Source of the DNA: Thermanaeromonas sp. C210
GTDB lineage: Bacteria; Bacillota; DSM-521; Neomoorellales; Neomoorellaceae
Length of the DNA: 64,000 nucleotides
Direction of reading: 5' to 3'
Assembly (NCBI RefSeq): GCF_013167955.1
Contig: NZ_BLWF01000004.1
Coordinates: forward strand, 478,587 to 542,586
In this document: positions 29,417 to 60,768 of the stretch, piece after piece
Layout: the number at the start of each line of letters is the position of its first letter
How positions within the stretch are numbered: position 1 is the stretch's first letter
Position numbers and translations under genes: made by a program
The notes under the pieces: model-generated
What the model was told of the DNA's origin: nothing
The model's input: only the letters and a program-made list of their open reading frames with translations
Database searches by the model: none

Positions 29417-29449
29417 AAGTGCTGCTACCTCCTCAAAGCCTCGTTTTGT

Positions 29450-44252: not shown

Positions 44253-44287
44253 ACTCTTGCCTCCATGTTGGAAACTATACCTCTTTT

Positions 44288-44316
44288 ACTATACTGGCCC
44301 GAGGTACCGTGGTCAA
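44288..44316 (-). promoter_or_regulatory. Sigma-A promoter of ltaE
   Basis: TTGACC, a 17-base spacer and TATAGT on the minus strand, 36 bases upstream of the ltaE start. This is the best consensus promoter seen in the window. Confidence 0.8.
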
Positions 44317-44632
44317 GGACAACAACCGAGTGATACTCTCGCGTCCCCGACGGTCACCGGCAGCCATTTCGGGCCACCTGTCCAGGGGGAAGAATCTGTG
44401 GATAGGACCACGTCTTGAAAAACAGGCTTTCACTTCCTCCGCGGGTCCCCGGGGATTAAACAATTCCGCTGATTACTCATATCCACCTTACCTTCCCTCT
44501 AAATTATTATATCCCTTAACTGGCCCAAACCTAATAGGTGTAACCGGTGCAGTCCTTTACGGGTGGTTTTTGCATCTTGAAGTAAAGGAAACTCCTATAT
44601 CGACGGCGTCAGCCCTTGTTCGGTAACTAATT
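44317..44632. other. Gap between butyrate-type kinase and ltaE promoter
   Basis: About 316 bases with no supported gene. A short open frame on the minus strand (44275..44463) has no family features and runs through the ltaE promoter. No terminator with a T-run and no riboswitch-like conserved block was recognised. Confidence 0.4.
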
Positions 44633-45709
44633 TCAAGGGTAAACCCGGGGCTTTTCTTCCCCCCGGAGTACCCGCAACGCACCCTCCACCATGGCCCGCA
44701 TTTCTTCCTCGCCCGGGTATACAAGGACAGGGGCAATCCATTGGGTCCGTTCGCGGACCCATCCCGTGAAGAGTTCCGAGAAGGCTAGGCCGCCGGTAAG
44801 CACAATGTAATCCACCTGGCCGGCAAGGACGCAGGCCATGGCGCCGATCTCCTTGGCCACCTGATAGGCCATAGCCTCGAATACTAATCGGGCCTGGCCA
44901 TCGCCGGATTTAACCCGTTTCTCGACCTCGGAGGCATCGTTGGTTCCCAAATAGGCCACCAGGCCGCCTTGACCCACCAGTTTACGGTCCAGCTCCCTGG
45001 CGGTGTACTTGCCGTTATAACACAGCTGTACGAGCCTGCGCACAGGCACGTGACCTGACCGTTCCGGTGAAAAGGGCCCTTCCTCGGTGGCGTTAGTGCC
45101 GTCGATGAAACGGCCACACCTGCTGGCCACCACCGAAATGCCGCCGCCGAGGTGGGCTAAAACAAGATTCAGATCTTCAAATTTCCGGCCGACATCACCC
45201 GCCATCCGGCGGCCTACTGCCTTGAGGTTGAGGGCGTGCAGTATGCTCCGGCGTGGTAATTCGGGCAGGCCCGAGAACCTGGCGAGGGGCTCAAATTCAT
45301 CGACCGATGGCGGATCGACGAAAAAGGAGGGGACGCCGTGCTTATCGGCAATACCTTTGGCCAACTGCACGCCGAGATTGCTGACATGCTGGCCCTGAAC
45401 ACCGATGAGCGCGTCCTCGATGACGCGCTCATCAATGAGGTATACTCCACCCTCAATGGGTTTGAGCAGACCACCGCGGCCAACTACGGCCGACAATTTC
45501 GCCAGGTCAAAGCCCGATTGGGCCAGGCATTTCAGGACTTGCTCCTTCCGGTATTCGTACTGGGCCGAAATGTCCCCGCCAAAAGACGCCAGTTCCCGAG
45601 CTGAATGATACACGGTTTTTTGAAAGAGGGGTTTTTCGTTTTCGTAGACGGCGAGTTTCGTCGAAGTCGAGCCCGGGTTGATGGCCAGGATATAGAATAC
45701 AGTCTTCAA
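44633..45709 (-). CDS. buk: Butyrate kinase / branched-chain fatty acid kinase
   Basis: A 358-residue acyl kinase of the acetate kinase superfamily making ATP from butyryl-, isobutyryl- or isovaleryl-phosphate. ASKHA landmarks are NPGSTSTKLAVYE near residue 11, GRGGLLKPIEGG near 77, the ALNLKAVGRR helix, AHLGGGISVV near 187 and VLTGGLAFSE near 305. It overlaps the gamma-subunit gene upstream by four bases and is the last gene of the 2-oxoacid oxidoreductase operon. Next to a branched-chain-type dehydrogenase this points to ATP from valine, leucine or isoleucine. No phosphotransacylase (ptb) gene is in the window. Confidence 0.92.
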   Translation of the reverse strand: MKTVFYILAINPGSTSTKLAVYENEKPLFQKTVYHSARELASFGGDISAQYEYRKEQVLKCLAQSGFDLAKLSAVVGRGGLLKPIEGGVYLIDERVIEDALIGVQGQHVSNLGVQLAKGIADKHGVPSFFVDPPSVDEFEPLARFSGLPELPRRSILHALNLKAVGRRMAGDVGRKFEDLNLVLAHLGGGISVVASRCGRFIDGTNATEEGPFSPERSGHVPVRRLVQLCYNGKYTARELDRKLVGQGGLVAYLGTNDASEVEKRVKSGDGQARLVFEAMAYQVAKEIGAMACVLAGQVDYIVLTGGLAFSELFTGWVRERTQWIAPVLVYPGEEEMRAMVEGALRVLRGEEKPRVYP

Positions 45710-46281
45710 ATGCGCTCACCTTTCTGGGCAACCGCGGTACCGCAGGCCAGGGCCATCTCAATTCCCCGGTTCAGGGCCTTTTCATTGAGGGGGATAAGGT
45801 CCTGCCGATGTCCAGGGATCATGTGTCTAAGGGCCTCCAGGACCGAGGCCTTAGATACGCAGCGGGTGGCGCCCAGGAAGGCGCCCAGGGCTACCATGTT
45901 GGCCACCCGGGAATCGCCGAGTTCCACGGCCGTCTCGTTGGCGGGCACCTCAAGCACTTTGACGTCCTCCCGTTTAACCTTGCGGGGGATAAGGGAAAGA
46001 TTGACTACTATGAGTCCCCCCGGCCGGACGCTGCCCTCGAATTTATCCAGAGAAGGCCCATTCATGGCTATGATCCCGGTAGGCTCGGCTACAACCGGCG
46101 ACCCCACTTCCCGGTCGGATACCACCACCGAACAGTTGGCTGTACCTCCGCGCATCTCCGGTCCGTAGGACGGCATCCACGAGACGTTTTTGCCCTCCAA
46201 CATACCGGCATAAGCCAGCAGTTCGCCAATTAGCATGACGCCCTGGCCGCCGAAGCCGGCTATAATGACTTCATGGGTCAT
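45706..46281 (-). CDS. 2-oxoacid:ferredoxin oxidoreductase gamma subunit
   Basis: A 191-residue subunit opening with IIAGFGGQGVMLIGELLAYAG, the standard gamma-subunit start, followed by PSYGPEMRGGTANCSVVVSD. It starts on the last base of the beta gene's stop and overlaps buk. With the alpha, beta and delta (ferredoxin) products it forms the four-part enzyme that oxidises a 2-oxoacid to acyl-CoA and reduced ferredoxin. Confidence 0.93.
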   Translation of the reverse strand: MTHEVIIAGFGGQGVMLIGELLAYAGMLEGKNVSWMPSYGPEMRGGTANCSVVVSDREVGSPVVAEPTGIIAMNGPSLDKFEGSVRPGGLIVVNLSLIPRKVKREDVKVLEVPANETAVELGDSRVANMVALGAFLGATRCVSKASVLEALRHMIPGHRQDLIPLNEKALNRGIEMALACGTAVAQKGERI

Positions 46282-47030
46282 CAGGCCGGCACCTCCCCGC
46301 CACCTTTAAACTCGCCCAAGGGATAATAGCTGATCATATTCTCCTTAAGCCACCTCAGGGCTTCTAAGGGCGTCATACCCCAGTTGACCGGACAGGTCGA
46401 TAAGACCTCCACCAGGGAAAAACCCTTGCCTACGAGCTGAATTTGGAAGGCCTTCTTAATCGCCCGTCTGGCCTTAGCCACTGCGGCCGGGTCGGTGACG
46501 GTGACGCGCGCAGTGTAGGCCGTGCCGTCCAGGGTGGCGAGCATCTCGCATACTCGAATCGGATAGCCGTCCCGTCCTGTCTTTCGGCCACCCGGGGTAG
46601 TAGTGGCCACCTGGCCCACGAGGGTGGTGGGGGCCATCTGGCCGCCGGTCATCCCGTAAGTACCGTTATTGACGAAAATAACAGTGATATTCTCACCCCT
46701 GGCAGCGGCATGGACGATCTCCGCCGTGCCAATGGAAGCCAGATCCCCGTCCCCCTGATAGGTAAAAACCACCCTGTCGGGCAAGACCCTCTTTATGCCC
46801 GTGGCAACGGCCGGAGCCCGGCCATGGGCTGCCTCTTGCATGTCTAAATTGAAATATCTGTGAGATAGAACTGAACAGCCTACGGAAGCTACACCAACGG
46901 TCCGTTCCTGCACGCCCAACTCTTCTATGACCTCAGCTACCAGCCGGTGAATAATGCCGTGGGTACACCCCGGGCAGTAATGGGTATGGGCGTCCGTAAG
47001 AGTCCGGGGCTTGGCAAAGACAGTTCGCAT
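46281..47030 (-). CDS. 2-oxoacid:ferredoxin oxidoreductase beta subunit (TPP-binding)
   Basis: A 249-residue thiamine diphosphate-binding subunit. [12 protein letters not shown] is the typical N-terminal block, and the TPP motif runs from GDGDLASIG near residue 95 to [16 protein letters not shown] near 126. The single cysteine pair region near 20 may contact the cofactor or a cluster. One-base junctions with alpha and gamma genes show strict co-translation. Confidence 0.93.
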
Positions 47031-48100
47031 TAGTCGTTAACCCTCCCCAGGAGCTTGCGCACTTCTTCAACGATGGCGGCAGGTGTCGGCATCATGCCAC
47101 CGGCGCGGCCGTAAAATGCCACTTGGCCCCGGCCGCTGATTACCAGGCGGACGTCTTCCACCATCTGGCCGTAATTCATCTCCACCACCAGAAACTTCTT
47201 AATGCCCAGGGCCAGGGCCTTCTCAAAGGGCTGTTCAGGAAAGGGCCAGCCGGTTATGGGCCGGATAAGACCCATCTTCAGGCCCGCAGCCCGTCCTTTT
47301 TCCATGGCACTACGGCAAATGCGGGCAGCGGTGCCGTAAGCCACCAGGGCCACATCCGCATCATCAAGGTTGACAGTCTCCCACCGTTTCTCGCGGGCCG
47401 AAATCTCGGCGTATTTTTTCTGCAGCCTCAGGTTAAGCTTTTCCAGCTCCTCCGGCTCCAGGTAGAGAGAGTTAATGACGTTGCGCGGCCTGTCTCCCTT
47501 CCACCCCGTGGTAGCCCACGGCCTAAAAGGCTTTTCGGTAACAGGCTCATCCACAAAACTCACCGGCTCCATGGCTTGTCCCAGGACTGCATCGGCCAGA
47601 AGCATTACCGGGTTGCGGTACCGGTCGGCCAATTCAAAGGCCAGCCGGGTCAAATCGACCATTTCCTGGATGGAGGCCGGTAGGAGGACAATCAGGTGAT
47701 AATCGCCATGACCGCCGCCTTTGGTGGCCTGAAAATAATCGCCCTGAGCCGCCTGGATGCCCCCCAGGCCCGGCCCGCCCCGAGCCATATTGACGATGAC
47801 CGCCGGCAATTCGGCGGCAGCCAGGTAGGATATGCCCTCCTGCATAAGGCTGATCCCCGGGCTGGACGAGGAAGTCATCACCCGGGCACCGGCGCCGGAG
47901 GCCCCGTAAAGCATGTTGATGGCCGCAACTTCACTTTCCGCCTGGACAAAGGTGCCGCCTACTTCAGGCAGCCTACGGGACATATATTCCGGAATTTCAT
48001 TTTGGGGCGTTATGGGATAACCCGCAAAGAAACGGCAGCCGGCCCGAACGGCCGCCTCTGCCAAGGCTTCGTTCCCCTTCATTAATCTTCTATCACCCAT
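47030..48100 (-). CDS. vorB: 2-oxoacid:ferredoxin oxidoreductase alpha subunit (VorB type)
   Basis: A 356-residue alpha subunit. It opens [17 protein letters not shown], with [15 protein letters not shown] near 27 and the [18 protein letters not shown] block near 77. It resembles the alpha subunit called VorB, of enzymes acting on branched-chain 2-oxoacids. A start 21 codons upstream is possible, but ATG 48100 fits the family and overlaps the ferredoxin gene by eight bases. The amino acid dehydrogenase upstream and buk downstream support a branched-chain oxoacid; 2-oxoglutarate cannot be excluded because KorA-type enzymes share this architecture. Confidence 0.87.
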
Positions 48101-48323
48101 TGGCGCCACCTGTCCCCTCCTGACGGTATACGGAAATGGCCACATCCGGGCACATCTGGGCACATAAACCGCAGGCCATACATTGGTCCTGCTCGGTTAC
48201 CTTGGCCGGGTGAAAGCCTTTGGAGTTCATCTGTTCTCTGGTCAGGTAGATGATCTTCTTCGGGCAAAAGGCCACACATAGCCCGCAGCCCTTGCAGCGT
48301 TCTTCATCGAACTTGACCGGCAT
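48093..48323 (-). CDS. Ferredoxin-type delta subunit of the 2-oxoacid oxidoreductase
   Basis: A 76-residue 2[4Fe-4S] ferredoxin with CKGCGLCVAFCP and CMACGLCAQMCP. ATG 48323 has AGGAGG upstream. It is the first gene of the operon delta-alpha-beta-gamma-buk. Confidence 0.93.
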   Translation of the reverse strand: MPVKFDEERCKGCGLCVAFCPKKIIYLTREQMNSKGFHPAKVTEQDQCMACGLCAQMCPDVAISVYRQEGTGGANG

Positions 48324-48415
48324 TTGGCTCCTCCTTTTCCGCATCCTTTCCGGCGACCCGCCAGGGCCGTTAGCCTAACCGTCGGCCGGCAAAAGAGACG
48401 GAGAGTCCCTCCCTA

Positions 48416-48487: not shown

Positions 48488-48504
48488 GGCTTATTCTACC
48501 GGTG

Positions 48505-49566
48505 CTACCGCGGAATGAAAGTACGATGGACGCCGTGGATGCGCGCGATCCGTTCTTCGGCCATACGGTCGGCGGCAATGTAGGTAGGAATGTTCTGTTC
48601 TTCGGCTATCTTAAATACCTTGAGGACCCTGTCGTAGATGCCGGCGGCCTTCTTGAGGGCCCGCTCCCGGTCGTATCCCCGCAATTCCTCGGCAATATTG
48701 ATTACCCCGCCGGCGTTCACAATATAGTCCGGGGCGTAAAAGATGCCCTTCTCTCGGAGGATGTCACCGTGTCTTTCTTCCTTAAGCTGGTTGTTGGCCG
48801 CCCCTACAATAACCTTGCACTTGAACTGGGGAATAGTATGATCGTTTATAATTCCGCCCAGGGCGTTCGGGGAAAAGATGTCGCAGTCGACCCCGTAGAT
48901 ATCCCCGGGGGCTACGGCAGTAGCCCCAAATTCTCCAACTACCCTGTCTACTGCTGCGGGATCGAGATCAGTCGCGATGAGCCTCGCTCCTTCCTCCGCC
49001 AGGTAGCGACAGAGAGCATAGCCTACGTGACCGAGGCCCTGAACGGCCACTACCTTGCCTTTAAGAGAATCATTTCCCCAGACAACAAGGGCGGTGGCCT
49101 TCATACCCATGTAGGTACCGTAAGCAGTAACCGGCGAGGGGTCGCCGCTCAGCCCGGCCAGGCCGGCGACGTATTGCGTCTCCATGCGGATGTACTCCAT
49201 ATCGTCTACGCTCGTTCCCACGTCTTCAGCCGTAATGTAGCGACCGCCCAGGGTATCGACGAAGCGGCCGAAGGCTCGGAAGAGTTCCTCACTCTTATCA
49301 GTCCTGGGATTGCCGATGATAACCGCCTTCCCCCCGCCGAGATTGAGACCCGCGGCGGCGTTCTTGTAGGTCATACCACGGGCTAGCCGGAGGGCGTCTA
49401 ACACCGCTTCGTCCTCACTGGCATAGGGCCACATGCGCAATCCCCCCAGGGCAGGCCCGAGGGTAGTGTCATGGATGCAAATAACGGCCCTAAGACCGCT
49501 GATCCGGTCGTGACACATTACTAGTTGCTCGTATCCGTATTGTTCCATATACTTGAAGACTTCCAT
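48505..49566 (-). CDS. Leu/Phe/Val/Glu dehydrogenase family, probably leucine dehydrogenase
   Basis: A 353-residue amino acid dehydrogenase. Landmarks are [19 protein letters not shown] near residue 41, the substrate lysines in [22 protein letters not shown] near 65-85, [13 protein letters not shown] near 115 and the NAD motif [15 protein letters not shown] near 180. It is shorter than glutamate dehydrogenases and matches the leucine dehydrogenase branch. ATG 49566 is chosen because GGAGG lies nine bases upstream. It deaminates branched-chain amino acids to the oxoacids used by the ferredoxin oxidoreductase encoded just downstream. Confidence 0.88.
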
Positions 49567-49723
49567 ATGGTTCAACCTCCGTATAGGTATGGCTACCGAA
49601 GATCTGCCCACAGTTAACAGGCTGACGACGGCGCTCCTTTGAAGCCACTGGAGGCTCCATTTATACCTCGGTCCTATGTCATTGCCATAAAAATCTCAGA
49701 AAACCTTAGGGTTTGACACCTTC

Positions 49724-50839
49724 TTAGAGAACTTCCCTCAGGTCATAGAAAGGTATTCCTACTGCCTCGGCTACACCCTTGCACGTGACTTTACCGTCGA
49801 TTACATTAACCCCTGCTGCCAAACACGGGTTATCCTGTATAGCCCGTAAGTACCCCTTGTTGGCTACTTCTAAGATATAGGGCAGGGTCACGTTGGTAAG
49901 GGCAAAGGTAGAAGTGCGGGGAACCGCACCCGGTATATTGGCTACGGAGTAATGCACTACTCCGTGTTTTATATAGGTGGGTTCAGCATGGGTGGTCACC
50001 CGGTCGATGGTGGCGATGCACCCACCCTGGTCTATGGCCACATCTACGACCACGGACCCGGGTTTCATGGCTTTGATCATTTCCTCTGTCACCAAGCGGG
50101 GCGCCCGAGCGCCGGGGATGAGCACTGCCCCGATCAGAAGGTCAGCCCCTTTCACCGCATCCGCCAGGTTGTAGGTATTAGACATAAGTGTCTCTACGCG
50201 GCCCTGGAAAACATCATCCAGGTATCTCAACCTTTCGGCACTGATGTCCAGGATAGTCACCCGGGCCCCCATGCCTACAGCAATCTTGGCAGCATTGGTA
50301 CCGACCACTCCCCCACCAACTATGACCACCGAGGCCGGAGGAACGCCCGGAACACCGCCCAAGAGCAACCCGGCACCACCACTGTGCTTTTCCAGCAGCC
50401 GGGCACCAATCTGCACCGCCATCCTCCCTGCCACTTCGCTCATGGGGGTAAGCAGGGGCAGGCTCCCATCCGGTGCAGTCACCGTTTCGTAAGCTATAGC
50501 TACTACGCCCTTTTCGACCAGGCACTTGGTCAAAGGGGCATCCGCCGCCAGATGAAGGTAGGTGAACAATATCTGTCCTTCCCGGAACAGCGGATATTCC
50601 GCCGGCAAGGGTTCTTTCACCTTAACAACCATATCTGCCCGCCCATACACTTCTTCATGGGAGTCAACAATTTCGGCCCCAGCTCTGGTGTATTCCTCAT
50701 CGGTTATACCGCTGCCCAACCCAGCCGACCTCTCTACCAGGACCCGGTGCCCTGCCTGCACTAAGGCCATAACGCCGGCTGGAACTAGGCCCACCCGGTT
50801 CTCGCTATTCTTAATCTCCTTAGGAACTCCGATAATCAT
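49724..50839 (-). CDS. ald: Alanine dehydrogenase
   Basis: A 371-residue NAD-dependent enzyme interconverting alanine and pyruvate plus ammonium. It opens [18 protein letters not shown], with the substrate Lys in VKVKEP near 73, FTYLHLAAD near 92 with the active His, [14 protein letters not shown] near 131 and the Rossmann motif [16 protein letters not shown] near 170. Length and motifs are typical. Its leader contains competing hairpins (50851..50905). In this neighbourhood it would let the cell use alanine or regenerate NAD while storing pyruvate as alanine. Confidence 0.95.
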
Positions 50840-50850
50840 TTATCCTTCCC

Positions 50851-50905
50851 GCCTCACTCAAAAGTAGTGTGAGGTGAGGCCACCTGCTGGCCAGGTGGAC
50901 TCACC
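50851..50905 (-). promoter_or_regulatory. Competing hairpins in the ald leader
   Basis: A strong hairpin at 50873..50905 (GGTGAG and CCACCTG arms with complements) uses the same bases as an alternative pairing of GCCTCAC (50851..50857) with GTGAGGC (50874..50880). The second structure lies 12 bases from the ald start and could hide its ribosome site. Attenuation or translational control is possible; the first hairpin may also simply end the upstream URO-D transcript. Confidence 0.35.
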
Positions 50906-50963
50906 CTTTCAACTTTAACTTTGTGCCTGCTAACCCGGTTACGGTTTTGGGTAACTTATGGAC

Positions 50964-52115
50964 TTACCTATATTTACCGTACTCTTCCCAAGCTTCCCAC
51001 ATGGCCATATAATTCTCGGGCGGAACGTCCGGCTGGACATTATGCACAGGTGTAAAGATAAAGCCGCCCCCCGGCGCCAGATCTTCAATCCGCCGCTTAA
51101 CTTCATCCTTCACCTGCTGAGGGGTACCAAGGTTAAGTACCTGCTGAGTATCTACGCCGCCACCCCAGAAAGTTAGCACATCTCCGAATTCCTTCTTGAG
51201 CCTCTTAGTGTCCATGTTCTTAGCGCTCACCTGGACCGGGTTGAGAGCATCTATCCCCACCTCGATAAGGTCGGGAATGATTTCATATACGGCACCGCAG
51301 GAATGGAAGAAAATGTAGGCTTTGGAGTATTTCTTAATGGTACCAAACAACTCTTTCTGCCGTGGCTTGATATATTTCCGGTAGGTTTCCGGTGAAATAA
51401 TCATACCGAATTGCGAGGCAAAATCATCCGCTTCTACTACAACGTCCACCAGGTCGCCCAGCTTGGACAGGGCCACCTCCCAATACCTGATCTTTATCTG
51501 TACCGTCTTATCCAGGATAGCGTTTGCCATCTTGGGATCACAGGCCAGATCCACAAAGAAGTTTTCGTATCCCCTCAGCCAATAAGCCATTTCTAGGAAG
51601 CCCGCCGATACTCCGGCTAGACATAAAGCTGCTCCGGTAGTCTCTGCCAGGCGCCGGGCCTCTTCTTCTACTCCCTCAAGGCGGCTCGGATCGGCCGGGT
51701 CCGGTATCTTGTAGTTAATCACTTCATCCGGGGTAGTAAAGTTAGCCAAGGGGTGGGTTTCCAGGTCAAAGTAAAGCCCACCGTCCCTGGGCATCCTCCA
51801 TCCAATACCCCACTGGTCCTTGAACCGGATGTACTGGCCGTCTTCCTGAAATTCAAGTTGCCACCCGCGAGGCGGTCTAGAGAATACCGGCCGGAAGTCC
51901 ACCTTGAGCAGCTGCAAAATGTCCTCATGGACTACGGCCAGCTGCTGGTGAATTTCTCCAACCTTAACCTCGTAATCCTTTTTGCCAAGGTAATCCAGGA
52001 GGTTACGATAGGCGATGCGGTGAATACCGGTAGTAACAGTACCCCACAGATCAAATGGTACCCGGTCAGGCTCCTGATGCCGCAAAGCCATTAGAGCTCG
52101 TTCCCTCGACTGCAT
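50964..52115 (-). CDS. URO-D family protein (corrinoid methyltransferase-like), second copy
   Basis: A 383-residue protein of the uroporphyrinogen decarboxylase superfamily. It opens with the typical ERALMALRHQEPDRVPFDLWG and carries FHSCGAVYEIIPDLIEVGIDALNPVQ near residue 285. The His-x-Cys of FHSCG is the place where MtaA-like methyltransferases begin their zinc site. No haem-synthesis genes are near, so a methyl transfer or demethylation role is more likely than haem formation. It is the last gene of the AOR cluster, which contains no corrinoid protein gene. It differs strongly from the copy at 2.2 kb, which lacks this cysteine. Confidence 0.82.
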   Translation of the reverse strand: MQSRERALMALRHQEPDRVPFDLWGTVTTGIHRIAYRNLLDYLGKKDYEVKVGEIHQQLAVVHEDILQLLKVDFRPVFSRPPRGWQLEFQEDGQYIRFKDQWGIGWRMPRDGGLYFDLETHPLANFTTPDEVINYKIPDPADPSRLEGVEEEARRLAETTGAALCLAGVSAGFLEMAYWLRGYENFFVDLACDPKMANAILDKTVQIKIRYWEVALSKLGDLVDVVVEADDFASQFGMIISPETYRKYIKPRQKELFGTIKKYSKAYIFFHSCGAVYEIIPDLIEVGIDALNPVQVSAKNMDTKRLKKEFGDVLTFWGGGVDTQQVLNLGTPQQVKDEVKRRIEDLAPGGGFIFTPVHNVQPDVPPENYMAMWEAWEEYGKYR

Positions 52116-52140
52116 GATATTGCACCTCTCCTTTTACAGG

Positions 52141-53106
52141 TTATCTAAGCAATAATCTGCCTTCCTTAATTACAACCTCTCCGTCCACCTCCACGGTCGG
52201 GTTCAGGACCAGCCCGTCCAGGTGGATGCCGGCTTCAACTGTCCCGCCGAAACCTCTGTTATCTCCAAAGGCAATATGGACGGTTCCAATAGCCTTCTCG
52301 TCTTCTAAGATGTTGCCGCTCACGATGGCCTTCTCATTGGTGCCGATACCCAGTTCGGCCAGAGCCGTGCCCGCCTCCCCGCACTTGGTGAGGGACTCCC
52401 ACAGCCACCTCGCGGCCTCACCACCCTCCGCCCGGACCGCTAAGCCTTTCTTTACCTCGATGATTACGGGCTCCTCCAGGCGACCCCAGCCGGCCAGGGA
52501 ACCATCCAGCACTAATATCCCTTCAGCCGATCCTTCCAACGGAGCTATATACGCTTCCCCTGCGGGAAGGTTGCCCGAAGCCCCGCGCTGCCGCAGTTCA
52601 CCGGCATCCATGACCCCGATACGACCGGTGAGCTTCATGGTAATATCCGTCCCCGCGGGAGAGGTTACGCGGGCCACCTGGCCGGCAGTTAGCACCTCGG
52701 CGTATTTCTTGGTCAAGGAGCGCATGGCTTCATAGTCCACTGCCAGAGCCCGCGTCATCATCTCGGCGGTGATCATCGGCATACTGGCTACCCGGGCCCC
52801 GGCCTCGCAGGCCTTCCGGCGGGCCCTGGTGTGGGAAAGGGACTTGGAGGTGGGGAGCAACAACACGTCGGCCGCGGCCATGGCTGCGGCCACCGCTGCA
52901 GGCGGCTCTTCCCCGTGCCGGGAGCGCGGCGGGAATTCTACAAAGATGGCCTCGCGCGCCAGTTCCCTAGCCGCCTGCCAGAAGGCGCCCGCTACCTCTG
53001 GCACCAGTCCGTCGGTTACCACCAGCGCCGTCTCGGTGTCTTGTAGAGCCAGGCATTCTACAAGGGCCCGACGGGCAATTTCTTTTAAGTCTACGTGGTT
53101 CAACAC
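52141..53106 (-). CDS. M29-type aminopeptidase / NicX-like metal enzyme
   Basis: A 321-residue protein with the two-part layout of family M29 aminopeptidases and the related 2,5-dihydroxypyridine dioxygenases: an N-terminal nucleotide-like fold (VVTDGLVPEV; LLLPTSKSLSHTRAR near 82) and a C-terminal part with SGNLPAGEAYIAPLEGSAEG near 178, ELGIGTNEKA near 250 and HIAFGDNRGFGG near 276 which hold the metal His/Glu set. The start is GTG at 53106. The relation to NicX, which opens a pyridine ring, is notable beside a DUF917 protein and an aldehyde oxidoreductase. Which activity applies is not clear from sequence. Confidence 0.78.
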   Translation of the reverse strand: MLNHVDLKEIARRALVECLALQDTETALVVTDGLVPEVAGAFWQAARELAREAIFVEFPPRSRHGEEPPAAVAAAMAAADVLLLPTSKSLSHTRARRKACEAGARVASMPMITAEMMTRALAVDYEAMRSLTKKYAEVLTAGQVARVTSPAGTDITMKLTGRIGVMDAGELRQRGASGNLPAGEAYIAPLEGSAEGILVLDGSLAGWGRLEEPVIIEVKKGLAVRAEGGEAARWLWESLTKCGEAGTALAELGIGTNEKAIVSGNILEDEKAIGTVHIAFGDNRGFGGTVEAGIHLDGLVLNPTVEVDGEVVIKEGRLLLR

Positions 53107-53118
53107 CTTCCACCCCCA

Positions 53119-53379
53119 TCAACCGCCTGCCAGATACGGCACAAAGACTACCATGTCGCCATCCTTGACCACCGTCTCCAGGCCGTCCAGGGTATAGATA
53201 CTGCGGCCATTCACTATCACTGCTACGGGCATCCTCCCTCCCGGCCCTTCTACCGCCGGGCCATCCAGGAGTTTAACGATCTGCCTTATTGTACTGCCGG
53301 GCTCTATTTCCAGTTCCTCCACCGCCTTACCAAATTTGGCCCTACTGTCCCCTGCGAACCGCAAGTGAATCTTGGCCAT
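53119..53379 (-). CDS. MoaD/ThiS-family small sulfur carrier
   Basis: An 86-residue ubiquitin-like protein ending in the required GG (VVFVPYLAGG). The core pattern includes KIHLRFAGDSRAKFG, AVIVNGRSI and LKDGD-like VVKDGDMVVF. ATG 53379 follows GGAGGGAGGG. Members supply sulfur for molybdopterin or other cofactors. MoaD-like genes often sit beside tungsten aldehyde oxidoreductases, which need this pterin, and here the AOR gene is one gene away. Confidence 0.85.
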   Translation of the reverse strand: MAKIHLRFAGDSRAKFGKAVEELEIEPGSTIRQIVKLLDGPAVEGPGGRMPVAVIVNGRSIYTLDGLETVVKDGDMVVFVPYLAGG

Positions 53380-53413
53380 CCCTTCCCTCCCTCCGGGTTT
53401 AGAGGACATACCC

Positions 53414-54535
53414 CTATAGTAGTTCAATAGGCGTATATTCCACCTCCGGATGCCCGTATCGGGCTCCACTGAAGGCCCGCGCGCCCTGAGGCGTCTTCAT
53501 GCTTTCCCGCAGCCGTTGGTGGCACGGTACGCCCACCAGGGCCATGGGCTGGCCTTCCTCTATCTCAACGCTCATAATCCCCCGACCCGATTTCGGGTCC
53601 AACATGCATACCAGATCGGGGAAGACCGCCTTGAGTTGGTCCTTTATCCACAGGACCATGGTCTCATTCTTGATGACCATATGGGCCCGCGCACGACCGC
53701 AGTCGTCCTCACCGCTCAACCAGACGTTGGTAAGGTAAAAGCCTCCCCTATCTTCTCCTTCCACCTTCTCCACCGTCCCGCGGAAGAGGAGCTTCCCACC
53801 CATTACCTCAGCCACCCTCTGGACGGGATCCTTACCTTCATTCCTGGCGGCGATGACCGCCCGGCCGATCTCCAGGGCTTTGCTGATGGTTCGCGGGATG
53901 ACAGCCTGCTTCAGTTGAGCCCCGGACATGGGGTAATGGTTGTTAGCACCCAGGCCGCCCCCTCTGGTGACCATCCAGCGACCTATCTCGTCGGCGAACA
54001 CCGGGTCTACCTGTTCGGCCACGATGATGGTGTTGCCCTCGGCGTCTACCAGAGGCATAGGGGTCAAGGAAACCCCGTGGCCCAGGAAACTGGTCATCTG
54101 GGTCTCCGGAGCCGACCTCCCCAGGGCATCTCCATCCACGGTGGCGATACCCAACCGCGCGGCCAGGGAAAGCATTACGGGGGTATTGAGACCGCCTACC
54201 TCAAAGGGTACTACATAGTCCACCCGGCGGTTTAAATACCTCTCCATGGCCCTGGTGGCTTCCAGCAGTTCAAATTTCTTCTCCCACCGGTCGAGCAGGT
54301 CATGAATGCTCCACTGCTCCAGGGTCTTCACCGAGCCCATAATTCCGCCGCAGACTACCAGGGAATCGTCTGGTACCTGGTCGGGATCGACCAGCACCAA
54401 CTCCCTCCCCTCGGCCAGGTCCTTCTCCAGGATGGCGCGTCCCCACTCGGGGTTGCCTCCCCCACCGGTGCCCAGGATGGCGAGGCCCTCCAGGAGGGGA
54501 TCGATATCTCTCGCTGTTAGCCGATAGCTTGCCAT
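53414..54535 (-). CDS. DUF917 family protein
   Basis: A 373-residue protein matching DUF917, a family often next to or fused with hydantoinase-type enzymes. Visible blocks are LAILGTGGGGNPEWGR near residue 18, GGIMGSVKTLEQW near 63, PFEVGGLNTPVMLSLAARLG near 109, DGDALGRSAPETQMTSF near 133 and the glycine-rich TRGGGLGANNHYPMSG near 190. Its reaction is not known to me. The gene stands between the AOR and MoaD-like genes with short gaps, so it is likely part of the same pathway, perhaps binding or transforming a cyclic amide or keto acid. Confidence 0.85.
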   Translation of the reverse strand: MASYRLTARDIDPLLEGLAILGTGGGGNPEWGRAILEKDLAEGRELVLVDPDQVPDDSLVVCGGIMGSVKTLEQWSIHDLLDRWEKKFELLEATRAMERYLNRRVDYVVPFEVGGLNTPVMLSLAARLGIATVDGDALGRSAPETQMTSFLGHGVSLTPMPLVDAEGNTIIVAEQVDPVFADEIGRWMVTRGGGLGANNHYPMSGAQLKQAVIPRTISKALEIGRAVIAARNEGKDPVQRVAEVMGGKLLFRGTVEKVEGEDRGGFYLTNVWLSGEDDCGRARAHMVIKNETMVLWIKDQLKAVFPDLVCMLDPKSGRGIMSVEIEEGQPMALVGVPCHQRLRESMKTPQGARAFSGARYGHPEVEYTPIELL

Positions 54536-54551
54536 AATAACCTCTCCTTCT

Positions 54552-56462
54552 TTACTCGGGAAGAAGTCTTCCCATAGCTTCCAGTTCCCTGGCTACTCCA
54601 TCCAGCCCCAGCTCTACCAGCGTTTCCCGCTTGGGCCAGCTGGTCTTCGGATCCCAGTTATGCAGGGTATAGTAGGCATCCAACATTTCGTCCAGCTTTT
54701 CCTGGGAAAGCACGGTAGCTCCCTCAGGAAGGTCAGGAGCTGGCTCGTTCAGAAGCCGCCAGGGTGCGGTATCATCCTGCCGGGTAGCCCCTTCTCGAAC
54801 GTTAAAGGCTTTTTCGATGTTAACTATCCTCCGCCCGGCCTTCATAATCTCATCTTCCGACATTTCCAGGCCCGTAGCGGCAGCGAACAGCCGGGCCATA
54901 CGGTCAGGGGTAACCCCAAAGAGGGCCGTGGTGGTGAAGGCGCAGAATCCAAGGGAGTCCGTTACCGCGTAGCAGTCTTCATGCCGCCGGACGATTTCGG
55001 CCCTTTTTTCTGTCAAGTAAGGATTGGCATATTTTTCATCCCCGGTGATGTCTTTAATAATCGCCCTGGCTTCCGGGCTAAGGCCAAATTCCGCAAAGGT
55101 CTCGGTGTGCAGGTGGTCGGCCCCTCGAGGGTTGACTGCAAAGGCCAGAGCGTAAGCCATGGCCTTCCGCGTGTCCACTCTGGACTGTTCCAAGCCCTTG
55201 ACCTCTATGGCCCACTTCCAGGAATCCTGGCCTACTTGCTGGGCCGCCCGCCGGACACCCTCGGCCAGCAGATTGCCTAAACCCTCCCGGAAGGCGATTT
55301 GCCTGACCATCTCCACTACGGCTTCGCCGTTACCCCAGGTAAGCTCCAGACCGCCGGTATCCTTTTTGGTCAGAACCCCGCGTTCATAACATTCCATGGC
55401 CCAAGCTATTACATTACCCACGGAGATGGTATCCATTCCGTAAAGGTTGCAGAGTTCATTGCCCTTCAGGATATATTCCCACTCATACACGCCGCACCCG
55501 CAGCCCAGGGAGCCCAGGGTTTCCAGCTCCGGTCCTCCGGAATAGCAGCCAGCATATTTGCCATGGTCCAGCTCCGTGTAACGGTGACAGCCTAGAATGC
55601 AGCTGTTGCAGCCTACCTTACGCTTCAGGTACCGTTCAGCCAGGATTTGGCCGCTGATTTTTTCTAGATTGGGATGGGAACCCCGACGCCAGTTGTCGAC
55701 GGCAAAGCCCCTCAGCTCATTCAAGGGGAGCACAGAACCCGAAGTGCCGTAGGCGTGCAGACCGCTGGAGCCCGAATCTGCCAGGAGCCCCTTCACGCAC
55801 TCCTGTACTACCTTCCAATAGGTTACCGGGTCCTTCAAGGCTATTTCGCCGCTGCCTTTGACTGCGATAGCTTTGAGTTTCTTGGATCCCATCACGGCAC
55901 CCCCGCCTCCACGAGCTGCCGTGTTGTAAATGGAGCACATGACCCCGGCCATCTTGACCAAATTCTCCCCCGCCTGCCCGATGCAGGCCACCTCGATTTC
56001 CTCACCGAGCTCCTCCCGCAAGATCCGGGTTGTTTCGCGCACGTCTTTACCCCACAGATGGGCGGCGCTCCGTACTTCCACACGATCGTCTTCGATGTAT
56101 ATATAAACTGGCCGGGCGGCCGCCCCGTGAACTACTAGGTGGTCGTAACCGGCGTACCGTAACTCTGTTCCCCAGTGCCCGCCTGAGTTGGCCTTTAAGT
56201 AGAGACCGGTAGCCGGGCTCTTGCAGGTAATGGTGGTCCGGCCGCTGGAAGGAGCGCCGGTGCCGCTGAGTTTGCCGGCGCCAAAGATAAGCACGTTCTC
56301 GGGCCCCAGGGGGTCGATACCCGGTTTAACCAGGTCCCAGAGGAGCTTAGCATTGATCCCCCGCGAGCCGAGAAAGGCGGCTTCCAGTTCCTTAGAGATC
56401 GGCTCAGTCCACGTCCTCCCCTCCGACAAATCCACATGCAGAATAACCTTGGCCTTCGTCAT
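54552..56462 (-). CDS. Aldehyde ferredoxin oxidoreductase (tungsten pterin enzyme)
   Basis: A 636-residue AOR-family enzyme oxidising aldehydes to carboxylic acids with ferredoxin. The N-terminal domain has GSRGINAKLLWD, GKLSGTGAPSSGR and TAARGGGGAVMGSKKLKAI (about 182-200). The [4Fe-4S] cysteines are Cys285, Cys288 and Cys292 in CNSCILGC, with the fourth in DSLGFC near 497. VNPRGADHLHTE is the pterin-side block. A strong AGGAGGGGG site precedes the ATG. It is encoded directly after a multi-cluster ferredoxin gene, the probable electron partner. Substrate unknown. Confidence 0.93.
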   Translation of the reverse strand: MTKAKVILHVDLSEGRTWTEPISKELEAAFLGSRGINAKLLWDLVKPGIDPLGPENVLIFGAGKLSGTGAPSSGRTTITCKSPATGLYLKANSGGHWGTELRYAGYDHLVVHGAAARPVYIYIEDDRVEVRSAAHLWGKDVRETTRILREELGEEIEVACIGQAGENLVKMAGVMCSIYNTAARGGGGAVMGSKKLKAIAVKGSGEIALKDPVTYWKVVQECVKGLLADSGSSGLHAYGTSGSVLPLNELRGFAVDNWRRGSHPNLEKISGQILAERYLKRKVGCNSCILGCHRYTELDHGKYAGCYSGGPELETLGSLGCGCGVYEWEYILKGNELCNLYGMDTISVGNVIAWAMECYERGVLTKKDTGGLELTWGNGEAVVEMVRQIAFREGLGNLLAEGVRRAAQQVGQDSWKWAIEVKGLEQSRVDTRKAMAYALAFAVNPRGADHLHTETFAEFGLSPEARAIIKDITGDEKYANPYLTEKRAEIVRRHEDCYAVTDSLGFCAFTTTALFGVTPDRMARLFAAATGLEMSEDEIMKAGRRIVNIEKAFNVREGATRQDDTAPWRLLNEPAPDLPEGATVLSQEKLDEMLDAYYTLHNWDPKTSWPKRETLVELGLDGVARELEAMGRLLPE

Positions 56463-56481
56463 AGCTCCCCCTCCTTTTGCC

Positions 56482-56886
56482 TTAGCTCTCGTACCGAATG
56501 GCCTGCGGGAGCTGGCACATGGTGACGCACGCAGGCTCTCCTCCGCACAGGTCGCACTTAAAGGCTACTCCCTTTTCAGCGTCAAAAAAGATGACGCCGT
56601 ACGGGCATGCCTCAATACATGCCTGACAACCGGTACATTCGTCGCTGAAGAGAAGGACTTCGTTTCGTTCATTTCTCCGGATGGCCTCCACAGGGCACGC
56701 ATCCATGCAGGGTGCCTCATCGCATTGCCGGCACACCACCGGGGTGGATTCCTCAATCTCCTCTTTCTTTTTGATCCGGATACGCGCCCGGCGATAGCTG
56801 GGCGCTTTTTCGTGCACCAGGGAGCAGACCATCATACAGGCTTTGCACCCCGTGCAGTTTTCGGGAGTCACCACAATCTTTCCCAC
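56482..56886 (-). CDS. Four-cluster ferredoxin-like electron carrier of the AOR
   Basis: A 134-residue iron-sulfur protein with CTGCKACMMVC near 11, CRQCDEAPCMDAC near 52, CTGCQACIEAC near 84 and CDLCGGEPACVTMC near 112, that is, up to four [4Fe-4S] clusters in the HycB/AorB style. It lies 19 bases upstream of the AOR gene and should pass electrons from it to ferredoxin or to the membrane. Confidence 0.92.
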   Translation of the reverse strand: MGKIVVTPENCTGCKACMMVCSLVHEKAPSYRRARIRIKKKEEIEESTPVVCRQCDEAPCMDACPVEAIRRNERNEVLLFSDECTGCQACIEACPYGVIFFDAEKGVAFKCDLCGGEPACVTMCQLPQAIRYES

Positions 56887-56961
56887 TGTTACGACCTCCT
56901 TTGTCTGGTTCTTTATCCGCGCTCAAAGCGTCCGCCACCCGCCGGGGAAGCCGTCCCGTAC

Positions 56962-57693
56962 TTAACCCTGAAGGCGATCCAGGAAAGGACGGTAAATAGG
57001 GTCTTGCTTCAGCCGTTCGCTTAACGCCTGGCCGCCCGCCTTGATGATCATGGCCAGTTCGGCCGCCCTGCGGCCGATGGTAGCGGCCCCGCGCAGCGCC
57101 ACCCTCATGTCCAGACTCCCTGCATTCTCCTTACTCTCCAGCACATTCCGGCCCCCTTCATTGTACGTCCAGGCCGCAGCGCCGATATAGGCCTCCCACA
57201 TGTCGCCCGTCACCGGCACGCATCCCATGACAAGGGCGTGGTTGATGAGGTCGGTAATGGTATGCTCCTGGCCGGAGAACAGGTGGCACCCCTGGGCAAT
57301 GGCACCTACAACCTTCATGCTTTTGGGCAGGGTAGCCTCCCCCTCAAAAAGGCCGGCGTAGCGGCCGAACAGGCTGTTGCCCAGCCGGTCGATAAAGGCC
57401 TTGAGCTGGGCCGGAATGCCCATATGGTACACCGGTACCGAATAGATAATGGCATCCGCCTCCAGCCACTTTTCCCGCAGCTCCTGGAAATCATCTTGGA
57501 AGATGCACTCGCCCTGCTTTTCGCCGCAGCGGGAACAACCGATGCAAGGGGCAAATTTCTTCCCCCGGATGGAGTACAGTTCGGTTGCCACTTCACCTGG
57601 TGCCACCTGCTGTGCAGCTTCCAGGGCTTTCTCCAGGAGATACTGGCTGTTCCCCTTTCTAGGGCTTCCACAGATACCTAAAACCTTTATCAT
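56962..57693 (-). CDS. Iron-sulfur flavoprotein / NAD(P)H-dependent flavodoxin-like reductase
   Basis: A 243-residue flavodoxin-fold protein. FMN-phosphate loop CGSPRKGNSQYLLEKAL is at residues 9-25. A compact cysteine group CIGCSRCGEKQGEC at about 50-63 fits an Isf-type [4Fe-4S] site. YSVPVYHMGIPAQLKAFIDR near 92 and the GAIAQGCH loop near 130 are typical. It starts the AOR cluster and could reoxidise or supply electrons. The Isf reading depends on the cysteine spacing; a plain NADPH-dependent FMN reductase is the alternative. Confidence 0.85.
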   Translation of the reverse strand: MIKVLGICGSPRKGNSQYLLEKALEAAQQVAPGEVATELYSIRGKKFAPCIGCSRCGEKQGECIFQDDFQELREKWLEADAIIYSVPVYHMGIPAQLKAFIDRLGNSLFGRYAGLFEGEATLPKSMKVVGAIAQGCHLFSGQEHTITDLINHALVMGCVPVTGDMWEAYIGAAAWTYNEGGRNVLESKENAGSLDMRVALRGAATIGRRAAELAMIIKAGGQALSERLKQDPIYRPFLDRLQG

Positions 57694-57735
57694 TCGTTCC
57701 CCTCCTAACCGAAGATAAACATACCTCTTCTTAAA

Positions 57736-58839: not shown

Positions 58840-58888
58840 CTTATTTACCTCCTCAGGGGAACCTGCCCCCCTTAGCCCTGGCGGTACT

Positions 58889-59002
58889 TTAATCATCCTT
58901 TGGCCGGCTGGTGGCAGTCAGGGCAACAGCCGCCAGGATGATAAGTCCCTTAAAAATATCCTGGAAGAAATACTGTGAACCCGCATGAACAGCTACGCCG
59001 AA
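58889..59002 (-). pseudogene. Remnant of a sugar ABC-transporter permease (RbsC type), C-terminal end
   Basis: About 37 codons in one frame end with FQDIFKGLIILAAVALT and a charged tail before a stop at 58889. This is the look of the last helix of ribose/galactose-type permeases. No start codon, no earlier helices and no partner genes are present; the fragment is squeezed between dgoK and the aminotransferase gene. It suggests deletion of an importer that once belonged to the galactonate genes. Confidence 0.6.
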
Positions 59003-59006
59003 TTTC

Positions 59007-60029
59007 TCATACCCTAACCGCCACCCCTCCTGCCCTCTCCACGTAATACAGCCCAATTTTCCTGGCTCCGACGGCGGTAGACATCTCCACCGTTTCATCA
59101 TCCAACATTACCAGTTTGTCTTTGACCTCCGGTTCCTCCGCTAGCAAAGTGTAGAGGGCCAGCCTCAGGGGCAACGGGCCGCCTATCACGATCTTGTCCT
59201 GCCCGTTAAGGGCACAGGCCCTGCTGTTTTTCATGGCAATCAAATCCTGCCCTAAGATAACCCCCAGAAGGAAATTAGCCCTCTGTTCCCCATCCGTGGG
59301 CATAAACTGGCTCATTATCCTGGTGGAAAAGCAGCCCCGGGTGAGGCCCACCTGGCGCGATATGGCCGCACCCCTGGAAATCATCTCCGGGTCCACCCGG
59401 GAAACAAGGTTTGGCGGAATAGAGTCGGCCAGGATGGTCTCAGTGGCCAGGGTACTAAATATCTCCCCTGCCATGGTAGTGAGGCAGCCCGCAATCTGGT
59501 TACGTTCATTTATCTTTATAATCTTTGTGTGCGAGCCCGGTAAGATCATGGTGAGGGGTCCCCTTAGGGACAGGAGTTCAAGAATGCCCAGGGCTTCCGT
59601 CTCCTCTCCCCGCATAATGTCCATGGCTTCCAGATTCTCAGCTTTTTCCCCGACGTGACAATTGTTCTTAATCCCCGGAATAAAGAGGATGGGGACATCC
59701 ATAAGTTCTGGAATCTTCACCAGCCGGCTCCCCGCGGCCAGTTCTTCTACGCCGGCCGGAGTACTTATATGCGGTACTTCATAGATTCCGACGTTGGAGG
59801 TTATCATGCCCGAGGCGGTCACCAATTCCAAATCTTTTTCTTTGATACCCACCATTTCCAGGGCCTCCCGCGTGGCCCGGCGCAGACCGTCAAGAAGAGT
59901 ATCTTTACTTCCGCTGATAGCCGTGTTGCGCACCCCTACGGGCGCACAGGCCTTACCTATTACTTGGTCGTTGCTCAAGACTCTCACTCTGGTGTTGGTG
60001 GTGCCACCATCTATCGTCATCAGCAGCAA
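59007..60029 (-). CDS. dgoK: 2-keto-3-deoxygalactonokinase
   Basis: A 340-residue kinase of the DgoK family, ASKHA fold. It opens MTIDGGTTNTRVRVL, then GVRNTAISGSK near 32, ASGMITSNVGIYEVPHI near 71, PGIKNNC near 118, MRGEETEALGIL near 139, ILPGSHTKI near 163 and the end block GARKIGLYYVE. The start is TTG at 60029 or ATG at 60020. It phosphorylates 2-keto-3-deoxy-D-galactonate, whose product is split by the aldolase encoded just upstream. It ends four bases before the permease remnant. Confidence 0.92.
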   Translation of the reverse strand: MLLMTIDGGTTNTRVRVLSNDQVIGKACAPVGVRNTAISGSKDTLLDGLRRATREALEMVGIKEKDLELVTASGMITSNVGIYEVPHISTPAGVEELAAGSRLVKIPELMDVPILFIPGIKNNCHVGEKAENLEAMDIMRGEETEALGILELLSLRGPLTMILPGSHTKIIKINERNQIAGCLTTMAGEIFSTLATETILADSIPPNLVSRVDPEMISRGAAISRQVGLTRGCFSTRIMSQFMPTDGEQRANFLLGVILGQDLIAMKNSRACALNGQDKIVIGGPLPLRLALYTLLAEEPEVKDKLVMLDDETVEMSTAVGARKIGLYYVERAGGVAVRV

Positions 60030-60069: not shown

Positions 60070-60726
60070 TTAGCCTTGTTGTTCACTTACTACTTGCTTA
60101 AATCGGCGCGCGATGGCGGCGAGCCTCGGCCAGTCGCTTTTTGCCAGGATGTCTCGGGGTGTCAAGGAGGAACCGACCCCAAGAACCTTAGCTCCCGCCT
60201 CCAAGAAGGCACGCCCATTTTCCAGAGTAACCCCGCCCACCGCAGCTAAAGGTATTTCGGGAAAAGGCCCACGCATTTCCCGGAAGAAGGAGAATCCCAG
60301 GGTACTTGCCGGAAAAACCTTTACAAGGTCCGCTCCCAACTTGTAGGCCTGGTGGATCTCCGTAGGCGAAAAAGCACCCGGTATAACGGCTACATCCAAT
60401 TCCTTACAGATCTCCACTACCTCAGGCAACATGGTGGGTGTCACGATAAACTTCGCTCCGACCTCGATCGCCTGCCTGGCCGCTTCGGCCGAAGTAACCG
60501 TGCCGGCCCCCAGCAGCATGTCTTCGCCATGCCTTTCCACTAGTTGCGACAACAGGCTAAGGGCCGCGGGACTGTTCAGGGTCACCTCCGCTACTTTTAT
60601 CTGCGATTCCAGGAAAATATCGGTAACTATTAAAAGTTTTTCTTTCTCGATGTTCCTAAGTATTGCTATCAGTTTCTCCCGTAAAATCATTTGGGTTATT
60701 TCTTCCTTTTTCCCCAGTCTTGCCAT
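60070..60726 (-). CDS. dgoA: 2-keto-3-deoxy-6-phosphogalactonate aldolase (KDPG aldolase family)
   Basis: A 218-residue class I aldolase with the Schiff-base Lys136 in LVKVFPASTLG, Glu47 in VAEVTLNS, GAGTVTSAEAARQA near 73 and AVGGVTLEN near 157. ATG 60726 is chosen with GAGGAGGAG upstream; the frame is open 13 codons further. Family alone does not separate KDPG from KDPGal aldolases, but the dgoK partner immediately downstream supports the galactonate role, and a separate eda copy serves KDPG at 21 kb. Confidence 0.85.
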   Translation of the reverse strand: MARLGKKEEITQMILREKLIAILRNIEKEKLLIVTDIFLESQIKVAEVTLNSPAALSLLSQLVERHGEDMLLGAGTVTSAEAARQAIEVGAKFIVTPTMLPEVVEICKELDVAVIPGAFSPTEIHQAYKLGADLVKVFPASTLGFSFFREMRGPFPEIPLAAVGGVTLENGRAFLEAGAKVLGVGSSLTPRDILAKSDWPRLAAIARRFKQVVSEQQG

Positions 60727-60768
60727 CCTCTCCATCTCCTCCTCATCGTCGATATTACCGCCCACTCT

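What the first reader, a model, noticed from the sequence alone, without database searches (positions are those of the whole stretch)
50964..57693. Unassigned catabolic cluster: AOR + DUF917 + MoaD-like + M29/NicX-like + URO-D methyltransferase-like + ferredoxins
Seven genes run tightly on one strand. Known pieces: AOR oxidises aldehydes to acids with ferredoxin; DUF917 accompanies hydantoinase-type chemistry; M29-like folds include pyridine-ring-opening NicX; URO-D-like proteins move methyl groups. No described pathway I know has this combination. A plausible theme is anaerobic breakdown of a methylated or N-heterocyclic compound to an aldehyde and then an acid. No corrinoid protein or transporter is in the cluster, which leaves the methyl acceptor open.
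Basis: partly seen in the sequence, partly recalled or inferred. Interest (0 to 1): 0.75.

Follow-up and report, generated by a model that had tools for sequence, protein, structure and literature searches.

The report
Tungsten-enzyme sugar-acid catabolic operon
The seven genes are the middle of a longer, widely shared gene cluster that probably lets anaerobes take up a sugar-like compound, oxidise it with a tungsten enzyme that charges ferredoxin, and cut it to pyruvate by an Entner-Doudoroff-type route; it offers a testable job for an uncharacterised tungsten-enzyme clade and an uncharacterised DUF917 subfamily.

Summary
In detail: seven intact genes on the minus strand, 50964-57693. They are only the middle of the operon. 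Upstream lie a KDPG-type aldolase, a 2-keto-3-deoxy-sugar-acid kinase and a class V aminotransferase; downstream lie alanine dehydrogenase, a Leu/Trp-type dehydrogenase and a 2-oxoacid:ferredoxin oxidoreductase. Moorella stamsii and a second relative carry the same order plus a ribose-type ABC transporter.

The cluster is real and specific. The DUF917 subfamily (49% identity or more) recurs across several bacterial phyla and archaea. Its linked AORs form one clade (100/100), and the flavoprotein co-occurs in 8 of 8 genomes. Sugar-acid kinase or aldolase genes flank 12 of 23 linked AORs against 0 of 20 other AORs.

Best reading: a ferredoxin-linked Entner-Doudoroff-like pathway for an imported sugar or amino-sugar compound, with DUF917 the leading candidate for the missing dehydratase. 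The methyl/N-heterocycle idea is not supported as the core: URO-D is dispensable and lacks a cysteine of MtaA, and the M29 protein keeps peptidase-type ligands. Substrate and biochemistry are untested.

The parts
60070..60765 (-). KDPG/KHG-type aldolase (Eda family), first gene of the run
   Evidence: PF01081 1e-39; TIGR01182 166.6 bits, over its 156 cut-off; same place in M. stamsii and G007
59007..60029 (-). 2-keto-3-deoxy-galactonokinase family kinase (DGOK)
   Evidence: PF05035 132.8 bits against cut-off 25; orthologues 75% and 68%
58890..58976 (-). remnant of the 3' end of a ribose-type ABC permease; binding protein, ATPase and most of the permease lost
   Evidence: 80% DNA match to the M. 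stamsii permease tail; 3.7 kb missing between kinase and this point; no close homologue of the binding protein elsewhere in the genome
57736..58896 (-). class V aminotransferase (PhnW / pyridoxamine-pyruvate / AGT-like)
   Evidence: PF00266 2e-27; NCBIfam hits below equivalog cut-offs; nearest solved structures AGT/serine-pyruvate enzymes
56962..57693 (-). iron-sulfur flavoprotein-like FMN reductase family protein (conserved CX2CX2CX6C)
   Evidence: PF03358 3e-24; four invariant Cys in alignment A3; 8/398 genomes, all carrying the DUF917 subfamily
56482..56886 (-). four-cluster ferredoxin subunit, WorS-like
   Evidence: Fer4 families; 16 Cys; matches the description of WorS in PMC13328260
54552..56462 (-). 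aldehyde:ferredoxin oxidoreductase large subunit (WorL/AOR)
   Evidence: AFOR_N and AFOR_C; 1aor E=9e-124 with the four cluster Cys conserved; separate clade 100/100
53414..54535 (-). DUF917 / S-Me-THD-like protein, candidate lyase/dehydratase
   Evidence: PF06032 and PF20906; below S-Me-THD equivalog cut-offs; predicted fold pLDDT 92, only whole-length match 2o3i
53119..53469 (-). ThiS/MoaD-like protein ending in Gly-Gly (WorX-like)
   Evidence: PF02597; C-terminus LAGG
52141..53106 (-). M29-like metallohydrolase
   Evidence: PF02073 2e-11; alignments to NicX and aminopeptidase T
50964..52115 (-). URO-D superfamily protein with HxC motif
   Evidence: PF01208 3e-29; alignment to MtaA 4ay7
49724..50839 (-). 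alanine dehydrogenase (Ald); same position in three genomes
   Evidence: 92% and 79% orthologues in M. stamsii and G007; named as Ald by reading the sequence, not family-searched
48505..49611 (-). Glu/Leu/Phe/Val-type dehydrogenase
   Evidence: PF02812, PF00208; best NCBIfam ScyB, below cut-off; also adjacent to DUF917 in G105 and G170
45706..48344 (-). 2-oxoacid:ferredoxin oxidoreductase subunits (KorDABC type)
   Evidence: named by reading the sequence; orthologues in the same order in two relatives
43221..45709 (-). butyrate-kinase-like and threonine-aldolase-like genes, co-linear in relatives
   Evidence: PF00871, PF01212; 92% and 86% orthologues in M. stamsii

Best explanation
This is the catabolic operon of a ferredoxin-linked, Entner-Doudoroff-like pathway for an imported sugar or amino-sugar/glycated compound. 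In the intact form, a ribose-type (or nucleoside-type) ABC transporter brings the compound in. A tungsten AOR (WorL, with the WorS-like four-cluster ferredoxin and a WorX/ThiS-like maturation protein) oxidises a sugar-derived aldehyde to an acid and reduces ferredoxin. A 2-keto-3-deoxy sugar acid is formed, phosphorylated by the kinase and split by the KDPG-type aldolase to pyruvate and glyceraldehyde-3-phosphate. Aminotransferases with alanine dehydrogenase, or the Leu/Trp-type dehydrogenase, remove nitrogen. DUF917 is the best candidate for the lyase/dehydratase that creates the 3-deoxy group, before or after the AOR step, because no known sugar-acid dehydratase was recognised in the cluster. 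The flavoprotein is probably an electron-transfer or redox partner; M29 and URO-D are accessory steps present only in some versions. Shown: gene content, conservation, specific linkage, the AOR clade, the transporter loss. Inferred: every reaction and the substrate.
For: Linked AORs are one clade (21 rows, 100/100), and in nine genomes the DUF917-linked AOR (50-100% identity) stands apart from all other AORs (43% or less, short fragments 44% at most). The flavoprotein subfamily occurs in 8/398 genomes, all among the 9 with the DUF917 subfamily (p 6e-16, uncorrected for relatedness). KDG kinase, KDPG aldolase or HpaI aldolase lies beside 12/23 linked AORs and 0/20 other AORs (p 1e-4), and sugar/nucleoside ABC genes beside 11/23 against 2/20. 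The kinase of G053 matches T. maritima KDG kinase 2afb at 1e-122. L076 holds transporter, flavoprotein, AOR module, aminotransferase, DUF917, HpaI aldolase, KDPG aldolase and KDG kinase in one run with no known dehydratase recognised. AOR ligands are conserved. Aminotransferase or LeuDH-type genes lie beside 9/23 linked AORs and 0/20 controls (counted from the table).
Against: Eleven of 23 AOR-linked loci show no KDG enzyme (some contigs are short, but L075, L099 and L103 are not). Several DUF917-subfamily loci, mainly archaeal (L092-L094, L097, L100), show neither AOR nor KDG genes. The kinase differs between lineages (DGOK against PfkB), so the sugar may differ. The kinase and aldolase of the window have another history than the core (dS 1.95 or saturated against about 0.4-0.85). 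DUF917 has no demonstrated dehydratase activity and its fold gives no mechanism. The window strain has lost the transporter.
Confidence: 0.55

Rival explanations
1. Glycated amino acid (Amadori compound) catabolism, a special case with its own mechanism: the conjugate is cleaved to an amino acid and 3-deoxyglucosone; AOR oxidises the latter directly to KDG, and the amino acid is fermented by the dehydrogenases, Kor, Ptb and Buk.
For: Explains AOR next to KDG kinase and aldolase without a sugar-acid dehydratase, and why amino-acid genes (Ald, LeuDH-type, Kor, butyrate kinase, threonine aldolase; a Ptb-like gene in G007) are co-linear. 3-deoxyglucosone oxidation to KDG is established chemistry (own knowledge).
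Against: No known fructosamine kinase or deglycase recognised; no literature found; the amino-acid genes are not near the cluster in most relatives.
Confidence: 0.2
2. One reading: anaerobic demethylation and ring opening of a methylated or N-heterocyclic compound, AOR oxidising the resulting aldehyde.
For: DUF917 relatives are named as acting on thiohydantoins; URO-D and M29/NicX-like folds are present; corrinoid proteins lie next to the cluster in L087, L089 and L096, and an MtrH-URO-D-corrinoid set in L096.
Against: URO-D near only 14/37 loci, M29 near 7/37; MtaA cysteine replaced; a NicX-type histidine replaced; the URO-D of L096 is nearer to another window gene, 2188-3249.
Confidence: 0.1
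3. Amino-acid fermentation cluster: the AOR oxidises aldehydes derived from 2-oxoacids, as proposed for Pyrococcus AOR, and the kinase and aldolase are chance neighbours.
For: Ald, LeuDH-type, Kor and butyrate kinase genes are co-linear in three Moorellaceae; PfAOR is thought to detoxify amino-acid-derived aldehydes (PMC13328260).
Against: KDG genes recur with this AOR clade across lineages and never with 20 other AORs, and sugar/nucleoside transporters recur too.
Confidence: 0.12

Closest known systems
Tungsten oxidoreductase (WOR/AOR) family, Class II (WorLS) with WorX, as classified in PMC13328260
   Same: large subunit with tungstopterin-type domains and one 4Fe-4S ligand set, four-cluster small subunit, ThiS-like WorX gene
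   Different: a separate clade tied to DUF917 and an iron-sulfur flavoprotein, with sugar-acid genes; that paper says only 5 of 92 clades have a defined physiological role, and its main text does not mention DUF917, sugars or Moorella
Semi-phosphorylative Entner-Doudoroff pathway (gluconate/galactonate dehydratase, KDG kinase, KDPG aldolase)
   Same: KDG-type kinase and KDPG-type aldolase
   Different: oxidation by a ferredoxin-linked tungsten enzyme instead of an NAD(P) sugar dehydrogenase; no known dehydratase recognised; nitrogen-removing enzymes included
S-methyl thiohydantoin desulfurase / thiohydantoin desulfurase (DUF917)
   Same: same two Pfam domains and the fold of 2o3i
   Different: 97 and 64 bits against cut-offs 450 and 440; own conserved set R44, W84, H153, N198, H200, H339
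MtaA/CmuA methylcobamide methyltransferases (URO-D fold)
   Same: URO-D fold, HxC motif
   Different: cysteine of MtaA replaced by glycine in all four orthologues; 82.6 bits against cut-off 235
NicX (2,5-dihydroxypyridine dioxygenase) / aminopeptidase T (M29)
   Same: M29-like fold and HxD pair
   Different: aligned position of the other NicX iron ligand is glutamate; M29-type ligands kept

Membership tests
WOR/AOR family, Class II | AFOR_N and AFOR_C domains over cut-off | tested here: met
   261.9 and 415 bits
WOR/AOR family, Class II | four cluster Cys and active-site Glu/His of PfAOR | tested here: met
   CxxCxxxC, the later Cys, GPE and the His aligned; residue roles from own knowledge
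WOR/AOR family, Class II | adjacent four-cluster WorS | tested here: met
   16 Cys in the ferredoxin gene, 19 nt from AOR
WOR/AOR family, Class II | contains tungsten and reduces ferredoxin | not testable with these tools
   needs purified protein
Entner-Doudoroff-type pathway | KDG/KDGal-type kinase | tested here: met
   DGOK over cut-off in the window; PfkB KDG kinase in G053, 2afb 1e-122
Entner-Doudoroff-type pathway | KDPG aldolase | tested here: met
   TIGR01182 over cut-off
Entner-Doudoroff-type pathway | known sugar-acid dehydratase in the cluster | tested here: not met
   none in the window cluster or recognised in the L076 run; one may lie elsewhere in the genome
S-methyl thiohydantoin desulfurase (NF058532) | score over the curated cut-off | tested here: not met
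   97.2 against 450 bits
MtaA-type methyltransferase | HxC plus distal Cys zinc site | tested here: not met
   HxC kept, distal Cys aligned to Gly; a nearby His might substitute
NicX dioxygenase | His, His, Asp iron ligands | tested here: not met
   HxD kept, other His aligned to Glu; ligand identities from own knowledge
M29 aminopeptidase | peptidase activity | not testable with these tools
   only a partial match, residues 125-282

The most novel reading that the evidence does not exclude
The DUF917 subfamily is a new type of sugar or sugar-acid dehydratase/lyase, and with the linked tungsten-AOR clade it forms a complete, previously undescribed ferredoxin-reducing Entner-Doudoroff-like route for amino or glycated sugars, shared by bacteria and archaea.
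Probability: 0.25. Interest if true: 0.8.

Novelty: new variant of a known kind. Interest (0 to 1): 0.6.

Why it matters
Only five of 92 clades of tungsten oxidoreductases contain a member with a defined physiological role (PMC13328260). This work links one clade to a specific partner set and to a testable reaction (sugar-derived aldehyde to sugar acid). It also gives a physiological context to a DUF917 subfamily and to an iron-sulfur flavoprotein subfamily. If right, it is a catabolic route that stores the energy of sugar oxidation as low-potential ferredoxin rather than NADH, which would matter for acetogens and other anaerobes.

Tried and rejected
Literature searches for DUF917 with AOR, AOR with KDG enzymes, thiohydantoin desulfurase, 3-deoxyglucosone with KDG, and fructosamine with AOR gave nothing useful. 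Foldseek and VIA-align for DUF917 found only 2o3i over the whole length (Z 38.6; everything else under 5), so the fold gave no function. The promoter/terminator scan was not informative: counts close to shuffles and no convincing break inside the run. Rfam gave only RNase P. Substrate inference from the binding protein gave only generic ribose-type proteins. I first thought that the MtrH-URO-D-corrinoid set of L096 belonged to this pathway; its URO-D is closer to window gene 2188-3249, so it may be a separate system.
Full report
OBSERVATION. Spacing is tight: 75, 19, 16, -56, 12 and 25 nt. Against Moorella stamsii the genes show dN/dS of 0.06-0.11 (MoaD 0.23), so they are maintained. The run continues beyond the stated limits: upstream a class V aminotransferase (57736-58896), a DGOK-family kinase (59007-60029) and a KDPG-type aldolase (60070-60765); downstream Ald, a Glu/Leu/Phe/Val-type dehydrogenase, Kor subunits, a butyrate-kinase-like and a threonine-aldolase-like gene. 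Ald and Kor were named by reading and orthology only.

THE INTACT FORM. In M. stamsii (G016; L053, L054, L073) and in G007 (L055, L112) the genes from aldolase to Kor lie in the same order, with three extra genes between kinase and aminotransferase: a ribose-type binding protein, an RbsA-type ATPase and an RbsC-type permease. In the window, DNA that matches M. stamsii up to the kinase end jumps 3.7 kb to the last 87 matching bases of the permease. The binding protein has no close homologue elsewhere in the 99% complete genome. So the transporter was lost in this lineage. A class I aminotransferase present in M. stamsii and G007 between butyrate kinase and threonine aldolase is also absent here.

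HORIZONTAL HISTORY. From the aminotransferase downwards the window is 84-94% identical to M. stamsii (MoaD 76%) with dS about 0.3-0.85, whereas rpoB and the Nif3-like gene have dS about 1.5-1.7 and rpoB protein is closer to G007. Kinase and aldolase have background-like divergence. The core therefore looks exchanged between lineages, with a break near the deletion. None of the other genomes searched in the genus of M. stamsii has the DUF917 subfamily.

CONSERVATION. A scan of 84,980 species genomes with the DUF917 alignment returned 31 loci at 49-91% identity from Bacillota, Chloroflexota, Elusimicrobiota, Thermodesulfobacteriota, Atribacterota, Thermotogota and several archaea. It is rare: 9 of 398 genomes of the phylum. 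The flavoprotein subfamily occurs in 8 of the same 398, all among those nine (hypergeometric p 6e-16 without correction for relatedness). Closest URO-D orthologues (E below 1e-200) occur in five genomes, all carrying the DUF917 subfamily, while more distant URO-Ds are widespread. In nine genomes the best AOR is the DUF917-linked one (50-100%); full-length others are 43% or less. A maximum-likelihood tree puts 21 linked AORs on one side of a branch with 100/100 support.

CONTROL. Within about 10 kb, 12 of 23 linked AORs have a KDG-type kinase, KDPG aldolase or HpaI aldolase; none of 20 unlinked AORs from the same and related genomes has (p 1e-4). Flavoprotein 17/23 against 1/20, URO-D 9/23 against 0/20, sugar/nucleoside ABC 11/23 against 2/20. 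Nine unrelated DUF917 loci showed none of AOR, flavoprotein, URO-D or KDG genes, but six had an M29 gene; in the one locus examined the neighbours are PucR, racemase, OPT, DUF1177 and AroM genes. So M29 and DUF917 share neighbourhoods more generally. Contigs are often short, so linked counts are lower bounds; related loci are not independent, so p-values are only indicative.

WHAT THE PIECES SAY. The AOR aligns end to end with Pyrococcus AOR and keeps the cluster cysteines. The ferredoxin has 16 cysteines and the ThiS-like protein ends in Gly-Gly, fitting WorS and WorX as described in PMC13328260. The G053 kinase matches T. maritima KDG kinase 2afb at 1e-122. L076 has the cleanest version: transporter, flavoprotein, ferredoxins, FAD reductase, AOR, ThiS, aminotransferase, DUF917, HpaI aldolase, KDPG aldolase, KDG kinase and IclR in one run, without URO-D, M29 or a recognised dehydratase. 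The DUF917 model (pLDDT 92) matches only 2o3i over its length, a protein of unknown function. Residues conserved in 31-32 of 32 subfamily members but rarely in paralogues include R44, H153, N198, N199, H200, K289, H339 and R341.

MECHANISM. Most likely: import of a sugar or amino/glycated sugar; aldehyde oxidation by the AOR with ferredoxin; formation of a 2-keto-3-deoxy sugar acid; phosphorylation; aldol cleavage to pyruvate and glyceraldehyde-3-phosphate; nitrogen removal by aminotransferase with Ald or the Leu/Trp-type dehydrogenase. The 3-deoxy step has no known enzyme in the cluster; DUF917 is the one unassigned enzyme that defines the cluster, hence the proposal. The order of DUF917 and AOR is open: either aldonate dehydration after AOR or formation of a 2-keto-3-deoxy aldehyde before it. 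All reactions are inferred.

The gene list and the sense that this is an undescribed cluster were right. The methyl/N-heterocycle reading is not favoured. A corrinoid protein beside the cluster in L087, L089 and L096 leaves a methylated substrate possible in some lineages.

Noticed in passing
window 58880-59010: Deletion scar: last ~29 codons of an RbsC-type permease left in intergenic DNA; whole sugar ABC transporter lost relative to M. stamsii and G007.
   Followed up: yes
window 43221-58896: This block is far more similar to M. stamsii (dS about 0.3-0.85) than two background genes (dS about 1.5-1.7), suggesting recent horizontal exchange.
   Followed up: partly
window 18780-31155: A second sugar-acid region: IclR, PfkB KDG kinase, altronate dehydratase, mannitol/tagaturonate-type reductase, xylose-isomerase-like, Gfo/Idh/MocA, creatininase-family, alcohol dehydrogenase and Na/Pi-cotransporter genes.
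   Followed up: partly
window 2188-3249: Gene that is the best window match of the URO-D protein of a Bathyarchaeota MtrH/URO-D/corrinoid/activator-like set (L096:825-5500), which sits just upstream of KDG kinase and KDPG aldolase.
   Followed up: no
window 62359-62723: Bacterial RNase P RNA class A on the minus strand.
   Followed up: no
L083:1647-5200, L084:2410-6000: Chloroflexota loci with three further DUF917 paralogues in tandem plus an M29 gene beside the subfamily member.
   Followed up: no
L062:4222-12114 and similar loci L059-L064: A different conserved DUF917 cluster in relatives: PucR, Asp/Glu racemase, OPT transporter, DUF917, DUF1177, AroM, M29; function unknown.
   Followed up: partly
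G000 genome: The genome encodes about ten AOR homologues (E below 1e-30), so it is rich in tungsten-type enzymes.
   Followed up: no
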